Positions 13,081 to 17,345 of a DNA stretch of 64,000 bases are shown piece by piece. The DNA is taken from NCBI RefSeq assembly GCF_963378085.1, contig NZ_OY726395.1:1612001-1676000 (forward strand). The letters are read 5' to 3'. How positions within the stretch are numbered: the first letter of the stretch is position 1; each line of letters starts with the position of its first letter. Under the pieces are notes generated by a model that saw nothing but the letters and a program-made list of their open reading frames with translations, did not search any database and was not told the DNA's origin. This DNA comes from Mycolicibacterium sp. MU0050 (GTDB lineage Bacteria > Actinomycetota > Actinomycetes > Mycobacteriales > Mycobacteriaceae). The position numbers and the translations under genes were made by a program.

Positions 13081-13836
13081 CTACTTGCGTTGCGCGGCCT
13101 GCAGGCGGGCCTGGAATTCCGGTGACTGGATCGACTTCGCCTGCGGGCCAAGCTCGGTGCGCATGGCGGTGTGGTGCAGCTCGGTATCGACCGAACCGGG
13201 AGAAGCGGTGGCGCGCATGGTCGCCTTGGTGGCCAGCACCACCTCGCGCGGAGCTGACGCCGGTCCGGCGGCCAGCTCCAGGGCGGCGGCCACCGGGTCG
13301 TCGGCGACCTGCAGGGCCAGACCGTGGGCGACGGCCGACTGGGCGTCGAACCGCATGCCGAACAGCAGGGCGGCGCGGGCGGCCTGCGGGCCCACGCCGC
13401 GCTGCAGCATCCAGGTGGCGCCGCCGCCGGGGTGAATACCCAGCTTCTGGAACCGGGGGTCGAACATGGCGTGCGGGCCCGCGATGCGGACGTCGGCCGC
13501 CAACGCGAGGTTCAGCCCGGCCCCCACCGCGGCGCCGTTGACGGCGGCGATCGTCGGCAGGGCGCAGTTGGCGACCGCCATGAAGCCGTCGTAAATGCGC
13601 AGCAGCCCCTCCTCGGCGGCCGACCCGAGCGCGCTGAGGTCGGCGCCCGCGCAAAATGCCTTACCGGCGCCGGTGACGACCAGTGCGTGCACGTCGGTGT
13701 CGGCCTCGGCACGGTCGACGGCCGCGCGGAGGCCGGCCGACATGTCGTCGGTGACGGCGTTGCGCCGGTCGGGATCGTTGACGGTGACCAGCGCGACGCG
13801 GTCGGTGACGGAGTAGAGCACGAGGTCAGAACTCAT
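13081..13836 (-). CDS. echA14: Crotonase-family protein (EchA14-like) lacking canonical catalytic glutamates
   Basis: The 251-residue product has crotonase landmarks: the oxyanion segment [13 protein letters not shown] and [23 protein letters not shown]. Aligned by eye with rat enoyl-CoA hydratase, the positions of the two catalytic glutamates hold Phe129 (FDPRFQKLG) and Ala155. It is therefore unlikely to be a normal 2-enoyl-CoA hydratase and may be an isomerase, hydrolase or non-catalytic member. It is convergent with bkdC; an echA14 gene (Rv2486) also lies between the bkd operon and lipQ in M. tuberculosis. Confidence 0.8.
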
Positions 13837-13905
13837 GGCCGAGACGTTACTCGCCGGCGCGTCGCCGGCCCGCCCTCGGGTTCCTCGACCTGCCGGCCGC
13901 CGCCA

Positions 13906-14667
13906 TTACGGTTGCGACCTGACGATCGCTGTGCCGCTGAGGGGACAGTCACCGCAGGTGCGTCGCGCGGCCGTGCGGTAGTAGAGGCAGCAACTGCGAC
14001 GTTTGATTGCCCCGATGATGTCCCCGTCGAGACGCCCAGACAGAGGCGGCGTGGCCAGGATCTGCCGCGATATCGCGTCCACGTCATGGTGATGGTGCTC
14101 TCCCCGACCCAAAAGCGTATTCGTCACCAGCACCAGTGCAGCGGCGGCGTTGCCCCACAGCAGACCCGCGGCCACCTCGGTGACGGACTTCAGCGCGATG
14201 TGCGCCGAGGTCAACTGATTGATGACGAGATCGGCGACAAGTGCCGCAGTTTCGGCCGGTGTGGCGCCGGGGCGCTCGAGTGCGGTGGGGATTGGAAGAT
14301 GAAATCTGACATGCCCCGCCGGAGATCTTCCGTAAGTCACGGCATGTAGGTCGGGTATCAGCCCGTCCGTCACCCAAGCCCCTAACGTCACGGCCCAAAG
14401 GCGTTCCGCAAGTTCGTACTGCAACGACGACACCGCGACGCGCGGCTCAGTTGTGTCCAGGCGGTGCGCTACGTCCTCGACGAGTTGACGCAAGTGGGGC
14501 TGTGAAAAGAACTCCTCGGCACTGACCCCAGGAGACGTTGGGTCGAGGCGGATCACGAAGTGCGGGCCGATGCCCCCGGTGGCGCGCAGTGCGCGGCGCG
14601 GCCGATCGCCGCTGATGGATTCCCAGCTGTTCACCTGACCGCCAAGGTGCCTCGGGGGTGCCGCCAC
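13906..14667 (-). CDS. FhuF-like 2Fe-2S protein (possible ferric-siderophore reductase)
   Basis: A 253-residue protein whose C-terminus holds the FhuF-type cluster motif: Cys226-Cys227, then Cys238 and Cys241 in CCLYYRTAARRTCGDC. FhuF proteins reduce ferric siderophores in the cytoplasm through a 2Fe-2S centre. The N-terminal 220 residues fit the poorly conserved FhuF body. GTG 14667 is taken as the start; an internal GTG at 14634 is an alternative. It is the last gene of the minus-strand block downstream of the cobalamin riboswitch and starts 51 bases after the ferredoxin gene ends. Iron or corrinoid reduction are both possible roles; the sequence does not decide. Confidence 0.72.
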   Translation of the reverse strand: MAAPPRHLGGQVNSWESISGDRPRRALRATGGIGPHFVIRLDPTSPGVSAEEFFSQPHLRQLVEDVAHRLDTTEPRVAVSSLQYELAERLWAVTLGAWVTDGLIPDLHAVTYGRSPAGHVRFHLPIPTALERPGATPAETAALVADLVINQLTSAHIALKSVTEVAAGLLWGNAAAALVLVTNTLLGRGEHHHHDVDAISRQILATPPLSGRLDGDIIGAIKRRSCCLYYRTAARRTCGDCPLSGTAIVRSQP

Positions 14668-14718
14668 GGTCGCGGTCTATTCGGATGAAGACCGGCTAGG
14701 GAGAGGCTAGCGATCTGC

Positions 14719-15126
14719 TCAATCACGTTGCCGACGCTGCCGTTTCGGTCTATCGAAGCGGTACGGCGTGAGTGCGGCCGGGAGTGCGGCAAGACCGGGA
14801 CCGCCGTCCCACAGCCAGCCGGCGATGTCGGCTGCCGCGGTCTCGTCCAGGACGAAACCCAACCATGTCGACCGTCCGCCGATTCGGTGTCCCTGACCCG
14901 ATGGCGAGACCACGAGTACGTTCGACCGCTCGCAAGGTCCCAGGCAATCCGTGGTCCGAAAGTTGGATATTCCCTGTAGTAGCTCGCGCAGGGTTGTCAC
15001 CTGGGCCTCGTGGTCGAACGTCGGGTGCTTCCTCGTCGTACCGCAGCAGCAACCACGGCACATGGTGACGGTCGGTTTGGACTGGTCCAACGCCACGATG
15101 TCTGCGCCTTTCGAATTCGTCTTCAC
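14719..15126 (-). CDS. Thioredoxin-like 2Fe-2S ferredoxin
   Basis: 135 residues; a cysteine-rich start (Cys23, Cys26-Cys28 in MCRGCCCGTTRKHP) and a second pair, Cys61 and Cys65 in DCLGPCERSN, fit the thioredoxin-fold 2Fe-2S ferredoxins common in actinobacteria. It probably carries electrons to a partner, the obvious candidate being the FhuF-like protein encoded just downstream. The start is GTG 15126, overlapping the stop of the folP-like ORF as GTGA. The C-terminus is Arg/Lys/Gln-rich. The partner assignment is inferred from adjacency only. Confidence 0.72.
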   Translation of the reverse strand: MKTNSKGADIVALDQSKPTVTMCRGCCCGTTRKHPTFDHEAQVTTLRELLQGISNFRTTDCLGPCERSNVLVVSPSGQGHRIGGRSTWLGFVLDETAAADIAGWLWDGGPGLAALPAALTPYRFDRPKRQRRQRD

Positions 15127-15395
15127 GTTGCGCGTCCATTCGGCGTCAGCCCCCAGATGGCGTTCAGCATCGCAACGCGGTCAAGTTCCTCGTCCACTGA
15201 CACCGGGACAGCGTGGGGCCGGGCGGATTCGCCTCCGACGTCGACCGCTCGTGCACCGTCATCGAACATCTTCCGGCCCGCGCTCGGCGCCCGTTCCAGC
15301 GTCTCGAATCTGCTTCTGGTCCAGAAGGAGTCGGGCGTGACATTCACCATTCCCATCACGCGCAGCGGCGTGCCACGGGGTCGGCTCCGATTCAT
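15123..15395 (-). pseudogene. Truncated dihydropteroate-synthase-like ORF (N-terminal part only)
   Basis: The 90-residue ORF matches the start of dihydropteroate synthase: VMGMVNVTPDSF (residues 13-24) and ARAVDVGGESARPHAVPVS, which are the first pterin/phosphate-binding segments. A full FolP is about 270-280 residues, and nothing resembling the rest was found nearby in any frame. It cannot be a working synthase on its own. Both ends are tightly coupled: its ATG overlaps the MTHFR stop (ATGA) and its TGA overlaps the ferredoxin GTG (GTGA). Either a larger gene was deleted internally or the short domain is retained as a small pterin-binding protein. Confidence 0.65.
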
Positions 15396-16282
15396 GATTG
15401 CGGCGACCAGTAGTCGAGCATCTCGGCGAAGGTGTCGAAAGCCGGCTTCGAGACACCGTAGGGCGCCTCGAAGTGCAAACTGAGCGGATAGCCCAATTCG
15501 GCCACCCCATCGATCACTCGCTTGTACAAGTCGAGGAGCCGACGGCGTTTGATTTCGGGTTCACTTGCGGCAAGGCCTCGGACGAACTCCTGCTCCGCAG
15601 CGACCGCCGGGTTGCCGGGATCCTGTATCAGCCAATCGATCAGGCGGACTTTGCTTTCCAGCTTCGGCACGAAGCCGAACGACAGCAGAATCTCGGGCCG
15701 GTGCTCGCTGATTCGCGAGTATTCGGAGAGGAAATCGACGATCGCATCGGAATAGAGCAACTGCGTCATCCAGAAGGTGGCGCCGTGATCGCATTTGAAA
15801 TCAAAACGTCCCTGCTCGCCATCGCGCGTCGGGATCAGGATGACGCCCCGGTTCGGTACCACGTCGTCGAACTTCGACAGAGCGTCCGTGGGTGCGACAC
15901 CGCCGCCCTCCCCGTCGTTCATCGTGCGAGGGACACCGACGAAGATGATGCCGTCGAATCCCGCTTCGCCCAGACCTGTGAGCCGGCTGCGAAGCGCAGA
16001 TTCGTTCAGGAACGAGGTGACCTGCGTGCACATACCTTGGACGCCGGGAAGTTCCGGATGGATGGCCGACCAATAATCCAAGACGTCAAGTTTGGGCTTC
16101 AACTCGATGGGGCGATCGGCGTCCTCCGCGATCATCCCGGGGATCGTGACGTGCCCAATGCGACCCGCGATGCCGGCCTCAGCGGAATACTGTAGGACCT
16201 CACGCGCCTCGTCGCGAGCGTACTCGGCCCCGCGGTCGGTGTTGGGTGGTACCAGTTCCAACGCGATGGTGTTCAGGGGCAC
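15392..16282 (-). CDS. Mycobacterial-type methylenetetrahydrofolate reductase
   Basis: 296 residues resembling the noncanonical mycobacterial MTHFRs (Rv2172c, MSMEG_6649 type) rather than FAD-dependent MetF: LNTIALELVPPNTDRG at the start, VPRTMNDGEGGGVAPTDAL, and PEILLSFGFVPKLESKV. It should reduce 5,10-methylene-THF to 5-methyl-THF, the methyl donor for methionine synthesis. GTG 16282 is chosen because CGGAGG lies 7 bases before it; the frame is open 19 codons further but without a start signal. It sits downstream of a cobalamin riboswitch and a metE remnant, consistent with a methionine/B12-responsive operon. Confidence 0.82.
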   Translation of the reverse strand: MPLNTIALELVPPNTDRGAEYARDEAREVLQYSAEAGIAGRIGHVTIPGMIAEDADRPIELKPKLDVLDYWSAIHPELPGVQGMCTQVTSFLNESALRSRLTGLGEAGFDGIIFVGVPRTMNDGEGGGVAPTDALSKFDDVVPNRGVILIPTRDGEQGRFDFKCDHGATFWMTQLLYSDAIVDFLSEYSRISEHRPEILLSFGFVPKLESKVRLIDWLIQDPGNPAVAAEQEFVRGLAASEPEIKRRRLLDLYKRVIDGVAELGYPLSLHFEAPYGVSKPAFDTFAEMLDYWSPQS

Positions 16283-16308
16283 CGGGAACCTCCGATTTCG
16301 TATGGGTG

Positions 16309-16345
16309 GACACGTTGCCCCAGGGTTGTTGGGGCGCAACGTGTC
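16309..16345 (-). terminator. Strong hairpin between metE remnant and MTHFR gene
   Basis: GACACGTTGC at 16309-16318 pairs perfectly with GCAACGTGTC at 16336-16345, with an inner CCC/GGG extension after a one-base bulge. On the minus-strand transcript no U-run follows, so it is either a U-less terminator/attenuator or a processing hairpin that separates metE' from MTHFR expression. Confidence 0.45.
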
Positions 16346-16351
16346 AGGGGA

Positions 16352-16555
16352 TCAGGCGTTGGTGCGAATCTGCTTGGCGGCCTCGGCCATGTTGCGCAGC
16401 CTGGCGTCGACTTCATCGGTCTTGCGGGTCTTCAAACCGCAGTCCGGGTTGGCCCAGAGCCGGTCGGGACGGACGGCGGACAACTCAGCGCGAAGTGCGT
16501 TACGGGGCCGTTGCGTGGCGATCTCAATGTCGTCGCAGTGAACGGCGGGACGGTA
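16352..16555 (-). pseudogene. metE: C-terminal remnant of a metE-like methionine synthase
   Basis: A 67-codon open stretch bounded upstream by an in-frame TAG (16556-16558) and ending in TGA. Its last 45 codons read as the C-terminus of cobalamin-independent methionine synthase, including [13 protein letters not shown], whose Cys is a zinc ligand in MetE, and [13 protein letters not shown]. The other roughly 90 percent of the expected 750-residue enzyme is missing. The remnant lies 140 bases downstream of a cobalamin riboswitch, the usual regulator of mycobacterial metE, so a deletion has joined the riboswitch region to the tail of the gene. Confidence 0.75.
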
Positions 16556-16689
16556 CTAGACACGGCGGGCGTCCTTCACACGATGGGATGCTCATCGCCA
16601 TCGGACGTCTGCCAGTGCAGTCGGGTGACCGCTGGGTGACTTCCGCCCATTCCGCGAGGCGATGCGCCGCTGGACGCGGCGCGCCCAGC

Positions 16690-16858
16690 ACAACTGGCAG
16701 GTCTTCGGACTCGCGGGCACGCACCGGTTCGGTGCTCCTAGTGGCCGTCGCTTCCCGGTCATGGTGACCAGTGCCATTGACGGCGGTCGTTCCTGCATAC
16801 CGCTGCGGGACAGTCCCGGGTTCTCACCGGGTTCCCTCTCACATCACACCTAGACCAG
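16690..16858 (-). promoter_or_regulatory. Cobalamin riboswitch
   Basis: Read on the minus strand, the conserved blocks come in the right order: AGGGAACCCGGTGAGAACC, GGGACTGTCCCGCAGCGGTA, then GGGAAGCGACGGCCACTAGG, and finally the B12-box-like AGTCCGAAGACCTGCC. GC stems lie between them. A further hairpin, CGATGG with CCATCG, sits at about 16578-16600 and could belong to the expression platform. Adenosylcobalamin binding would be expected to switch off downstream genes, here the metE remnant and the MTHFR block. Edges are approximate. Confidence 0.85.
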
Positions 16859-16873
16859 CGTGGGACGTTCGAT

Positions 16874-16895
16874 GTGGCGACCAGGAGGTCGCCAC
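16874..16895. other. Perfect 9-bp hairpin upstream of the riboswitch
   Basis: GTGGCGACC and GGTCGCCAC flank a 4-base AGGA loop. It lies in the 192-base stretch between riboswitch and tRNA-Arg, where no gene is supported. It could be a terminator protecting the riboswitch promoter or an operator. No U-run follows on either strand. Confidence 0.4.
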
Positions 16896-17087
16896 AGACC
16901 AGTTGCGCCGCTCAGACTACTCTGCGGCGATATCGGGGGAGCAGCACCGCCGACCCAGGGCCGCTAGAGGTATCTGGGCCGGATCCATGGCCGTGGCTGA
17001 ACTTCTCGAACAAGCCGTCACCGACAAACTCGGCTCCGCCACAAACGCCGAGATTACTCAGCACGGCTGAATAAATCCTGATCGAGC

Positions 17088-17160
17088 GCCCCCGGCAGGA
17101 ATCGAACCTGCGACCTAGAGATTAGAAGGCTCTTGCTCTATCCAACTGAGCTACGGAGGC
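17088..17160 (-). tRNA. tRNA-Arg (anticodon TCT)
   Basis: A 73-base cloverleaf on the minus strand: acceptor GCCTCCG paired with CGGGGGC, D-arm GCTC/GAGC, anticodon loop CTTCTAA giving TCT, and T-arm GCAGG-TTCGATT-CCTGC. No CCA is encoded. Reads AGA codons, which are rare in this GC-rich genome. It stands between the riboswitch block and lipQ. Confidence 0.93.
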
Positions 17161-17345
17161 AATGTGCAGGTAGTTTAGCCAACCCCGCGGTCCGGGCCCA
17201 GCGTGCGCCACGCGCCGGGACAAATGCGTTTGGATGGCAGTGGAGTTGGCTACTGTGTGAGTCACGACACAACGCGGTCCGAGTGGGCCGCGCCGGGTCG
17301 TGGCGGGCGACGACGCCCATGCCGGAATGCGAGGGTGTTGTTGCG

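What the first reader, a model, noticed from the sequence alone, without database searches (positions are those of the whole stretch)
13906..16858. Cobalamin riboswitch driving a rearranged one-carbon/Fe-S cluster after loss of metE
In sequence: a minus-strand cobalamin riboswitch, then only the last 67 codons of a metE-like gene, then MTHFR, a folP-like piece, a 2Fe-2S ferredoxin and a FhuF-like protein. Known: mycobacterial metE is often controlled by such a riboswitch. Inference: a deletion has left the riboswitch controlling a new set of genes, so methyl-folate supply and an Fe-S redox pair may respond to B12. This is the strongest candidate for an undescribed system in the window.
Basis: partly seen in the sequence, partly recalled or inferred. 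Interest (0 to 1): 0.75.

Follow-up and report, generated by a model that had tools for sequence, protein, structure and literature searches.

The report
Relocated B12-switch operon that lost metE
A vitamin-B12-sensing RNA switch in this mycobacterium heads a moved copy of a methionine operon whose metE and folP genes were cut down, leaving a methyl-folate enzyme and two iron-sulphur proteins whose relatives elsewhere often lie behind B12 switches.

Summary
In detail: a cobalamin riboswitch (RF00174, 90 bits) heads a minus-strand run of metE remnant, MTHFR, folP stub, [2Fe-2S] ferredoxin-like and FhuF-like genes. The inference needs correcting. (1) metE is not lost: the genome has an intact riboswitch-metE-MTHFR operon elsewhere, and metH. 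(2) MTHFR, folP and the ferredoxin are no new set: M. asiaticum and M. sphagni keep riboswitch-metE-MTHFR-folP-ferredoxin beside pyc/prpC. The window copy lies between tRNA-Arg and an enoyl-CoA hydratase gene, a site empty or otherwise filled in 7 relatives that could be judged. It lost about 2.1 kb of metE and 180 folP codons; FhuF now adjoins the ferredoxin. (3) B12 control without metE has natural parallels: a riboswitch directly before MTHFR-ferredoxin (L094) or MTHFR (L085, L101), and each Fe-S family recurs behind riboswitches with BtuFCD-like genes. Best reading: a relocated, trimmed B12-OFF operon, probably still B12-repressed (inferred, not measured). Boldest: a B12-repressed Fe-S pair that reduces corrinoids.

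The parts
17087..17160 (-). tRNA-Arg(TCT); its 3' end borders the cargo
   Evidence: Rfam tRNA 65.9 bits; homologous tRNA called Arg(tct) by ARAGORN in relatives
16914..16919 (-). candidate -10 box TAGTCT upstream of the leader (inferred by eye)
   Evidence: TAnnnT at the same place in 5 of 5 aligned leaders; the consensus scan found no promoter
16679..16900 (-). cobalamin riboswitch aptamer
   Evidence: RF00174 90.3 bits; 88% identical over 204 nt to the one before the host's intact metE
16432..16563 (-). metE start with about 19 original codons, running into a 43-codon frame-broken ORF
16352..16495 (-). 3' end of metE, about 47 codons and stop, in another frame
16309..16345 (-). stem-loop after the metE stop; a hairpin is found at this place in all relatives folded
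15392..16282 (-). MTHFR (PF19345; flavin-independent type by homology), intact frame; keeps the catalytic Glu9
15123..15395 (-). folP (DHPS) stub with an in-frame deletion of 180 codons
14719..15126 (-). [2Fe-2S] ferredoxin-like protein with a CRGCCCGT ... CLGPC motif; relatives start near residue 11
14656..14694 (-). probable 39-nt scrap of the 5' part of pyc (antisense)
   Evidence: 84.6% over 39 nt, E 2.9e-6; shorter matches at the same part of pyc in two other loci are not significant alone
13906..14634 (-). FhuF-like [2Fe-2S] protein, 242 aa
   Evidence: PF11575 over cut-off; fold match to E. coli FhuF 7qp5
13081..13836 (-). enoyl-CoA hydratase gene, host flank of the cargo
   Evidence: PF00378 and PRK05870; flanks the same tRNA in relatives

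Best explanation
The locus is a relocated, trimmed copy of a mycobacterial B12-OFF operon (riboswitch - metE - MTHFR - folP - ferredoxin). A copy most like that of M. asiaticum came to lie at the 3' end of tRNA-Arg (place shown by synteny; donor and mechanism inferred). Deletions removed most of metE and 180 codons of folP (shown) and probably a stretch beginning in pyc, which set a FhuF-like gene next to the ferredoxin (inferred). Leader, aptamer and metE start region are kept (shown). Expected working: with little adenosylcobalamin the leader is open, a 43-codon peptide is made, and MTHFR (own GGAGG), ferredoxin and FhuF are transcribed; with much cobalamin the metE start is masked and transcription ends in or near the leader, as reported for the M. 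tuberculosis metE switch (PMC11260477, passages), so the survivors are shut off too (inferred). MTHFR would add methyl-folate when MetE is needed; the two Fe-S proteins would serve electron transfer in B12 acquisition or reactivation (inferred).
For: Parent operon in M. asiaticum and M. sphagni. Two empty sites and five sites with unrelated cargo among the 7 relatives where the tRNA was in the stretch. MTHFR tree: the 5 metE-linked rows form one group (98/94), window with M. asiaticum (95/94), host housekeeping copy elsewhere. Leader 87% identical to M. asiaticum and well conserved in 5 aligned leaders. Riboswitch directly before MTHFR-ferredoxin in L094 and before a separate MTHFR in L085 and L101. 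Pairwise dN/dS 0.10-0.18 for MTHFR, 0.21-0.32 for the ferredoxin, 0.20 for FhuF (window against relatives).
Against: No expression data. Pairwise dN/dS mostly reflects time before the insertion. Broken metE translation could change polarity in either direction. The pyc scrap is short. 0 of 80 ferredoxin loci have a FhuF-like match within about 8 kb, so the Fe-S pair is not an old fixed unit; most ferredoxin loci showed no riboswitch by pattern search.
Confidence: 0.55

Rival explanations
1. A decaying relic: the segment duplicates host functions (intact metE and MTHFR, and pyc/prpC, stand at the host's own locus), so it is being deleted piece by piece; what remains is not yet lost but no longer matters.
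For: metE, folP and probably pyc cut; host keeps metE-MTHFR and a third MTHFR. In M. komossense (L084) the same operon is cut by a TrwC-relaxase gene that leaves 33 residues of MTHFR.
Against: MTHFR, ferredoxin and FhuF frames, MTHFR Glu9 and the leader are intact; the ferredoxin has no second copy in the genome; the host's other FhuF-like protein is only 33% identical.
Confidence: 0.33
2. Transcription from the riboswitch ends at the hairpin, and MTHFR to FhuF are read from a separate promoter without B12 control.
For: A strong hairpin at 16309-16345; metE translation is broken.
Against: The same kind of hairpin lies inside relatives' operons before MTHFR or ferredoxin genes; no terminator-like site at it and no consensus promoter in 13800-17200. 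Consensus scans are weak evidence in mycobacteria.
Confidence: 0.07
3. As to origin only: an old duplication within the lineage rather than transfer from an M. asiaticum-like donor.
For: The host's canonical metE-linked MTHFR lies in the same group of the tree, on a long branch of unsure place.
Against: The window MTHFR is 84% identical to M. asiaticum and 76% to the host's canonical copy; GC 64% against 69-70% in the flanks; the two closest sampled relatives carry other cargo at the site.
Confidence: 0.2

Closest known systems
metE cobalamin riboswitch of M. tuberculosis and M. smegmatis (PMC11260477, PMC8088520; passages read)
   Same: Same Rfam family before the metE start; leader and start region kept
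   Different: Here metE is a frame-broken remnant and the intact genes behind it are MTHFR, ferredoxin-like and FhuF-like
Riboswitch-metE-MTHFR-folP-ferredoxin operon of M. asiaticum (L083) and M. sphagni (L118)
   Same: Gene order and sequence (about 83-87% DNA identity to M. asiaticum in matched parts)
   Different: The window copy lost most of metE and folP, gained FhuF as neighbour and lies at tRNA-Arg, not beside intact pyc/prpC
Riboswitch-MTHFR-ferredoxin unit of Mycobacterium sp. 236(2023) (L094)
   Same: Riboswitch commands MTHFR and ferredoxin without metE; metE has its own riboswitch elsewhere
   Different: Lies beside pyc/prpC, riboswitch ends 73 nt before MTHFR with no metE remnant found, MTHFR 70% identical
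Flavin-independent mycobacterial MTHFR (PF19345; 8bgr, 8qpj; Rv2172c, MSMEG_6649)
   Same: 526.6 bits to PF19345; best solved match 8bgr; Glu9 kept
   Different: Belongs to the metE-linked group, not with the host's other copy at C1:4747791
E. coli FhuF (7qp5)
   Same: FhuF_C domain, CC...CxxC end, Foldseek E 2.9e-4, TM 0.67
   Different: Below the TIGR03951 FhuF equivalog cut-off; many relatives lie in riboswitch-headed loci, several with BtuFCD-like genes

Membership tests
Cobalamin riboswitch (RF00174) | Covariance-model score over the gathering cut-off, full-length match | tested here: met
   90.3 vs 31.5 bits, positions 1-189
Cobalamin riboswitch (RF00174) | Binds cobalamin and controls expression | not testable with these tools
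   needs in-line probing or reporters
MetE | Full-length two-domain enzyme | tested here: not met
   about 19 + 47 codons left of about 758, frame broken; 53 vs 929.95 bits for TIGR01371
Mycobacterial MTHFR (PF19345) | Family score over cut-off over the whole length | tested here: met
   526.6 vs 27 bits, positions 1-294 of 295
Mycobacterial MTHFR (PF19345) | Catalytic Glu9 of the M. hassiacum enzyme | tested here: met
   aligned Glu9 (residue from PMC11094777, passages)
Mycobacterial MTHFR (PF19345) | NADH-dependent activity without flavin | not testable with these tools
   reported for Rv2172c (PMC8765232, passages)
Dihydropteroate synthase (FolP) | DHPS equivalog score | tested here: not met
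   72 vs 162.6 bits in the window; 257 bits for the M. asiaticum gene
FhuF ferric-siderophore reductase | FhuF 2Fe-2S C-terminal domain (PF11575) | tested here: met
   27.7 vs 20.5 bits; cysteines invariant in 46 sequences
FhuF ferric-siderophore reductase | FhuF equivalog score (TIGR03951) | tested here: not met
   28.5 vs 63.85 bits, so it is filed as FhuF-like only
FhuF ferric-siderophore reductase | FhuF fold | tested here: met
   7qp5_B E 2.9e-4, TM 0.67
FhuF ferric-siderophore reductase | Reduces ferric siderophores | not testable with these tools
   needs enzyme assay
Thioredoxin-like [2Fe-2S] ferredoxin | Thioredoxin-like ferredoxin fold with cluster cysteines | tested here: inconclusive
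   best Foldseek hit 9jn8 at E 4.2e-3, TM about 0.5, none at E <= 0.001; NF041613 21.9 vs 195 bits; C27, C28, C61, C65 invariant and C23, C26 nearly so in 41 sequences

The most novel reading that the evidence does not exclude
The ferredoxin-like and the FhuF-like protein are a B12-repressed Fe-S pair that reduces imported or inactivated corrinoid (Co(III) towards Co(II)/Co(I)), as FhuF reduces ferric siderophores. Each recurs separately behind cobalamin riboswitches, often with BtuFCD-like transporter genes, in actinobacteria, and this locus has brought them together with MTHFR into one B12-OFF unit. B12-dedicated MTHFR units without metE have arisen more than once in mycobacteria.
Probability: 0.3. 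Interest if true: 0.75.

Novelty: new variant of a known kind. Interest (0 to 1): 0.52.

Why it matters
It shows a riboswitch operon being moved and pruned while the switch and part of its regulon survive. It points to a B12-OFF module in mycobacteria (MTHFR, DHPS and a ferredoxin behind metE) for which I found no description in the papers searched. And it gives a testable lead for what reduces corrinoids in actinobacteria: two Fe-S families that recur behind cobalamin riboswitches and BtuFCD-like transporters.

Tried and rejected
Selenocysteine: 6 of 13 ferredoxin matches were flagged with one TGA; the translations show these are ordinary terminal stops. Rejected.

'No metE in the genome': rejected.

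Hairpin as terminator: rejected as a discriminator. A hairpin follows metE in 10 of 10 segments folded, two of which are identical; the only terminator-like site in 13800-17200 lies inside MTHFR, where shuffles give 2.4 on average.

FhuF within 1.5 kb of a riboswitch: 5 of 20 loci, all 5 among the closer homologues, looked like a sharp split. With about 7 kb flanks two distant homologues (L263, L265) also had one upstream, so the split is not clean and I use the wider counts.

Pattern search for riboswitches in the 80 ferredoxin loci found 9 or, with another pattern, 8, with no hit in shuffled loci; Rfam showed that the patterns miss some (L090, L094; the second also L155), so these are lower bounds. 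The patterns found none in the FhuF loci where Rfam found them.

FhuF beside the ferredoxin elsewhere: 0 of 80 ferredoxin loci, against the two being an old fixed pair.
Full report
WHAT IS THERE. Rfam finds one cobalamin riboswitch in the window, 16679-16900 (-), 90.3 bits. Behind it on the same strand come a metE remnant, MTHFR (PF19345), a 90-aa folP stub, a 135-aa ferredoxin-like ORF and a FhuF-like protein. The metE start codon (GTG 16563) and about 19 codons are kept, about 2.1 kb is missing relative to M. asiaticum, and about 47 codons of the end remain in another frame; the ORF from the GTG is 43 codons long. folP lost 540 nt (180 codons) in frame.

THE GENOME HAS NOT LOST metE. The window is G000:C1:1612001-1676000. 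The same genome holds metE at C1:4916954-4917922 (domain match, in an 824-aa open frame), followed by an MTHFR 76% identical to the window's and preceded by its own cobalamin riboswitch. It also has a metH-type gene at C1:2150144 and a third MTHFR at C1:4747791, 68% identical. Seven cobalamin hits were found in the genome, six over the cut-off.

THE PARENT OPERON. The ferredoxin was used as a marker: 12 of 198 genomes of the genus have it, the own genome included. In genome contigs 376 stretches encode a relative and the best 80 were kept. In M. asiaticum (L083) and M. sphagni (L118) the order is riboswitch, metE, MTHFR, full-length folP, ferredoxin, then pyc and prpC on the other strand. The M. 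asiaticum folP scores 257 bits for DHPS, cut-off 162.6. Of the 80 loci, 7 have a near full-length metE upstream of the ferredoxin (L083, L085, L090, L091, L095, L101, L118), 4 of these with MTHFR between (L083, L090, L091, L118). Two more metE matches (L088, L098) are fragmentary or weak and were not counted. folP was found in 3 of 80 (L083, L084, L118). Rfam places a riboswitch before metE in L083, L085, L091, L095, L101, L118 and L036; in L090 the only hit (40 bits) lies about 1.7 kb before metE.

HOW THE WINDOW COPY DIFFERS. Against M. asiaticum it matches at 87% (riboswitch to metE start), 85% (metE end to folP) and 83% (ferredoxin), with the metE and folP interiors missing. A 39-nt piece between ferredoxin and FhuF matches the 5' part of pyc in the expected orientation (E 2.9e-6); matches to the same part of pyc in M. 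sphagni and the host are shorter and not significant alone. In M. sphagni the closest FhuF-like gene among the sampled genomes (76%) lies about 13 kb from the ferredoxin, beyond pyc and prpC. A deletion from pyc to FhuF in a segment with that order would give the window's arrangement; this is inference from one short scrap. GC is 64% in the insert against 69-70% in the flanks.

THE SITE. The cargo lies between tRNA-Arg and an enoyl-CoA hydratase gene. Of 12 relatives inspected, 7 show the tRNA: 2 have it 97 and 178 nt from the hydratase gene (empty) and 5 have 2.8-10.7 kb there; in the other 5 the tRNA was not in the stretch. None of the 12 matches the window's cargo at E 1e-5. In one (L194) the tRNA is called on the opposite strand. 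In a coarser look 7 of 30 loci, own included, had tRNA-Arg within 1.5 kb upstream of the hydratase gene. The two closest sampled relatives by that gene (G165, G040) carry other cargo. In the MTHFR tree of 27 rows the five metE-linked rows form one group (98/94) and the window row pairs with M. asiaticum (95/94), while the host's third MTHFR falls with G165 and G040 at lower support (85/64, 90/84). Arrival from an M. asiaticum-like donor fits best; an old duplication is not excluded, as the host's canonical copy is a long branch.

DOES B12 STILL CONTROL IT? Not measured. The leader is well conserved in 5 aligned sequences up to the metE start; the host canonical stretch was cut short. For M. 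tuberculosis, B12 masks the metE start and an about 3-kb transcript is replaced by one under 500 nt (PMC11260477, passages), which would not need an intact metE. In M. smegmatis metE is strongly attenuated by endogenous cobalamin (PMC8088520, passages). Natural parallels: in Mycobacterium sp. 236(2023) (L094) a riboswitch (88.7 bits) ends 73 nt before MTHFR, followed by the ferredoxin, and no significant metE match is in the locus. A borderline second hit (32.7 bits) lies on the other strand just before it. That genome's metE (813-aa frame) lies about 16 kb away with a second riboswitch. In L085 and L101 a weaker hit (40.1 and 42.5 bits) lies about 145 nt upstream of a separate MTHFR.

THE TWO FE-S PROTEINS. 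FhuF-like: of 9 loci with several-kb flanks around the 9 best matches in other genomes, 7 hold a cobalamin riboswitch on the FhuF strand at or upstream of the gene; L074 and L078 do not. Of 10 further loci, 4 hold one, 3 upstream on the same strand and 1 downstream. At the host's density 0.37 would be expected in the 279 kb scanned, against 11 loci; several genomes are close kin, so that comparison overstates independence. Earlier, 5 of 20 loci with 1.5 kb flanks had one. FecCD, ABC or periplasmic-binding genes adjoin FhuF in L075, L076, L079, L081 and L082. The host's second FhuF-like gene follows a riboswitch at C1:5010306. Ferredoxin: in two Rhodococcus loci (L096, L098) a riboswitch lies about 3 kb upstream; in L098 FecCD, ABC and binding-protein genes fill the gap by Pfam, and L096 looks alike by ORFs. 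In a Nocardioides (L155) the riboswitch ends 76 nt before the ferredoxin match. Against a strict link: by pattern search only 8-9 of 80 ferredoxin loci had a riboswitch, a lower bound, and no Streptomyces locus did. AlphaFold models: ferredoxin pLDDT 87, best hit a thioredoxin-like ferredoxin at E 4e-3; FhuF-like pLDDT 90, best hit E. coli FhuF.

SELECTION. Pairwise dN/dS (window against relatives): MTHFR 0.18, 0.10 and 0.18 (M. asiaticum, M. sphagni, host canonical), ferredoxin 0.21 and 0.32, FhuF 0.20. These are long-term values and cannot tell what happened after the insertion.

LITERATURE. One held paper has FhuF, cobalamin and riboswitch together; its single FhuF passage is about cobalt and Fe-S enzymes. 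Searches listed 5 and 3 papers on MTHFR, metE and riboswitch terms; none of the titles describes such an operon. Of these I read only passages of PMC5070874. The 2025 review PMC12713380 has no FhuF or MTHFR in its main text.

VERDICT. What is most interesting is not the loss of metE but the recurrence of MTHFR and the two Fe-S families behind cobalamin riboswitches.

Noticed in passing
L072 (G000:C1:5001000-5020000): A cobalamin riboswitch precedes a second FhuF-like gene (33% identical), and about 2.6 kb on another riboswitch precedes a FecCD gene.
   Followed up: partly
L015 8891-9078 (G000:C1:1604890-1605077, about 7 kb before the window): A cobalamin riboswitch followed by a 558-aa ORF that looks like a PPE protein (recalled likeness, not tested).
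   Followed up: no
L084 2477-8378 (M. komossense): The same operon is cut by a TrwC-relaxase gene whose frame runs into the last 33 residues of MTHFR; folP and ferredoxin follow. A mobile gene thus sits in this operon.
   Followed up: partly
L094 6625-6966: Two cobalamin hits back to back on opposite strands (88.7 and 32.7 bits) before MTHFR.
   Followed up: no
window 16309-16345 and metE ends in relatives: A strong stem-loop of changing sequence follows metE in every relative folded; its role is unknown.
   Followed up: partly
window 13837-17086; L193-L195, L197, L198: The gap between tRNA-Arg and the hydratase gene looks like a cargo hotspot, 97 nt to 10.7 kb.
   Followed up: partly
P0140, P0167, P0178: Some FhuF-like homologues carry the source name 'iron complex transport system ATP-binding protein'; two are 326 and 421 aa, perhaps fusions to a transporter ATPase.
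   Followed up: no
G000:C1:4051787-4051921: A sub-threshold cobalamin hit, 30.2 bits.
   Followed up: no
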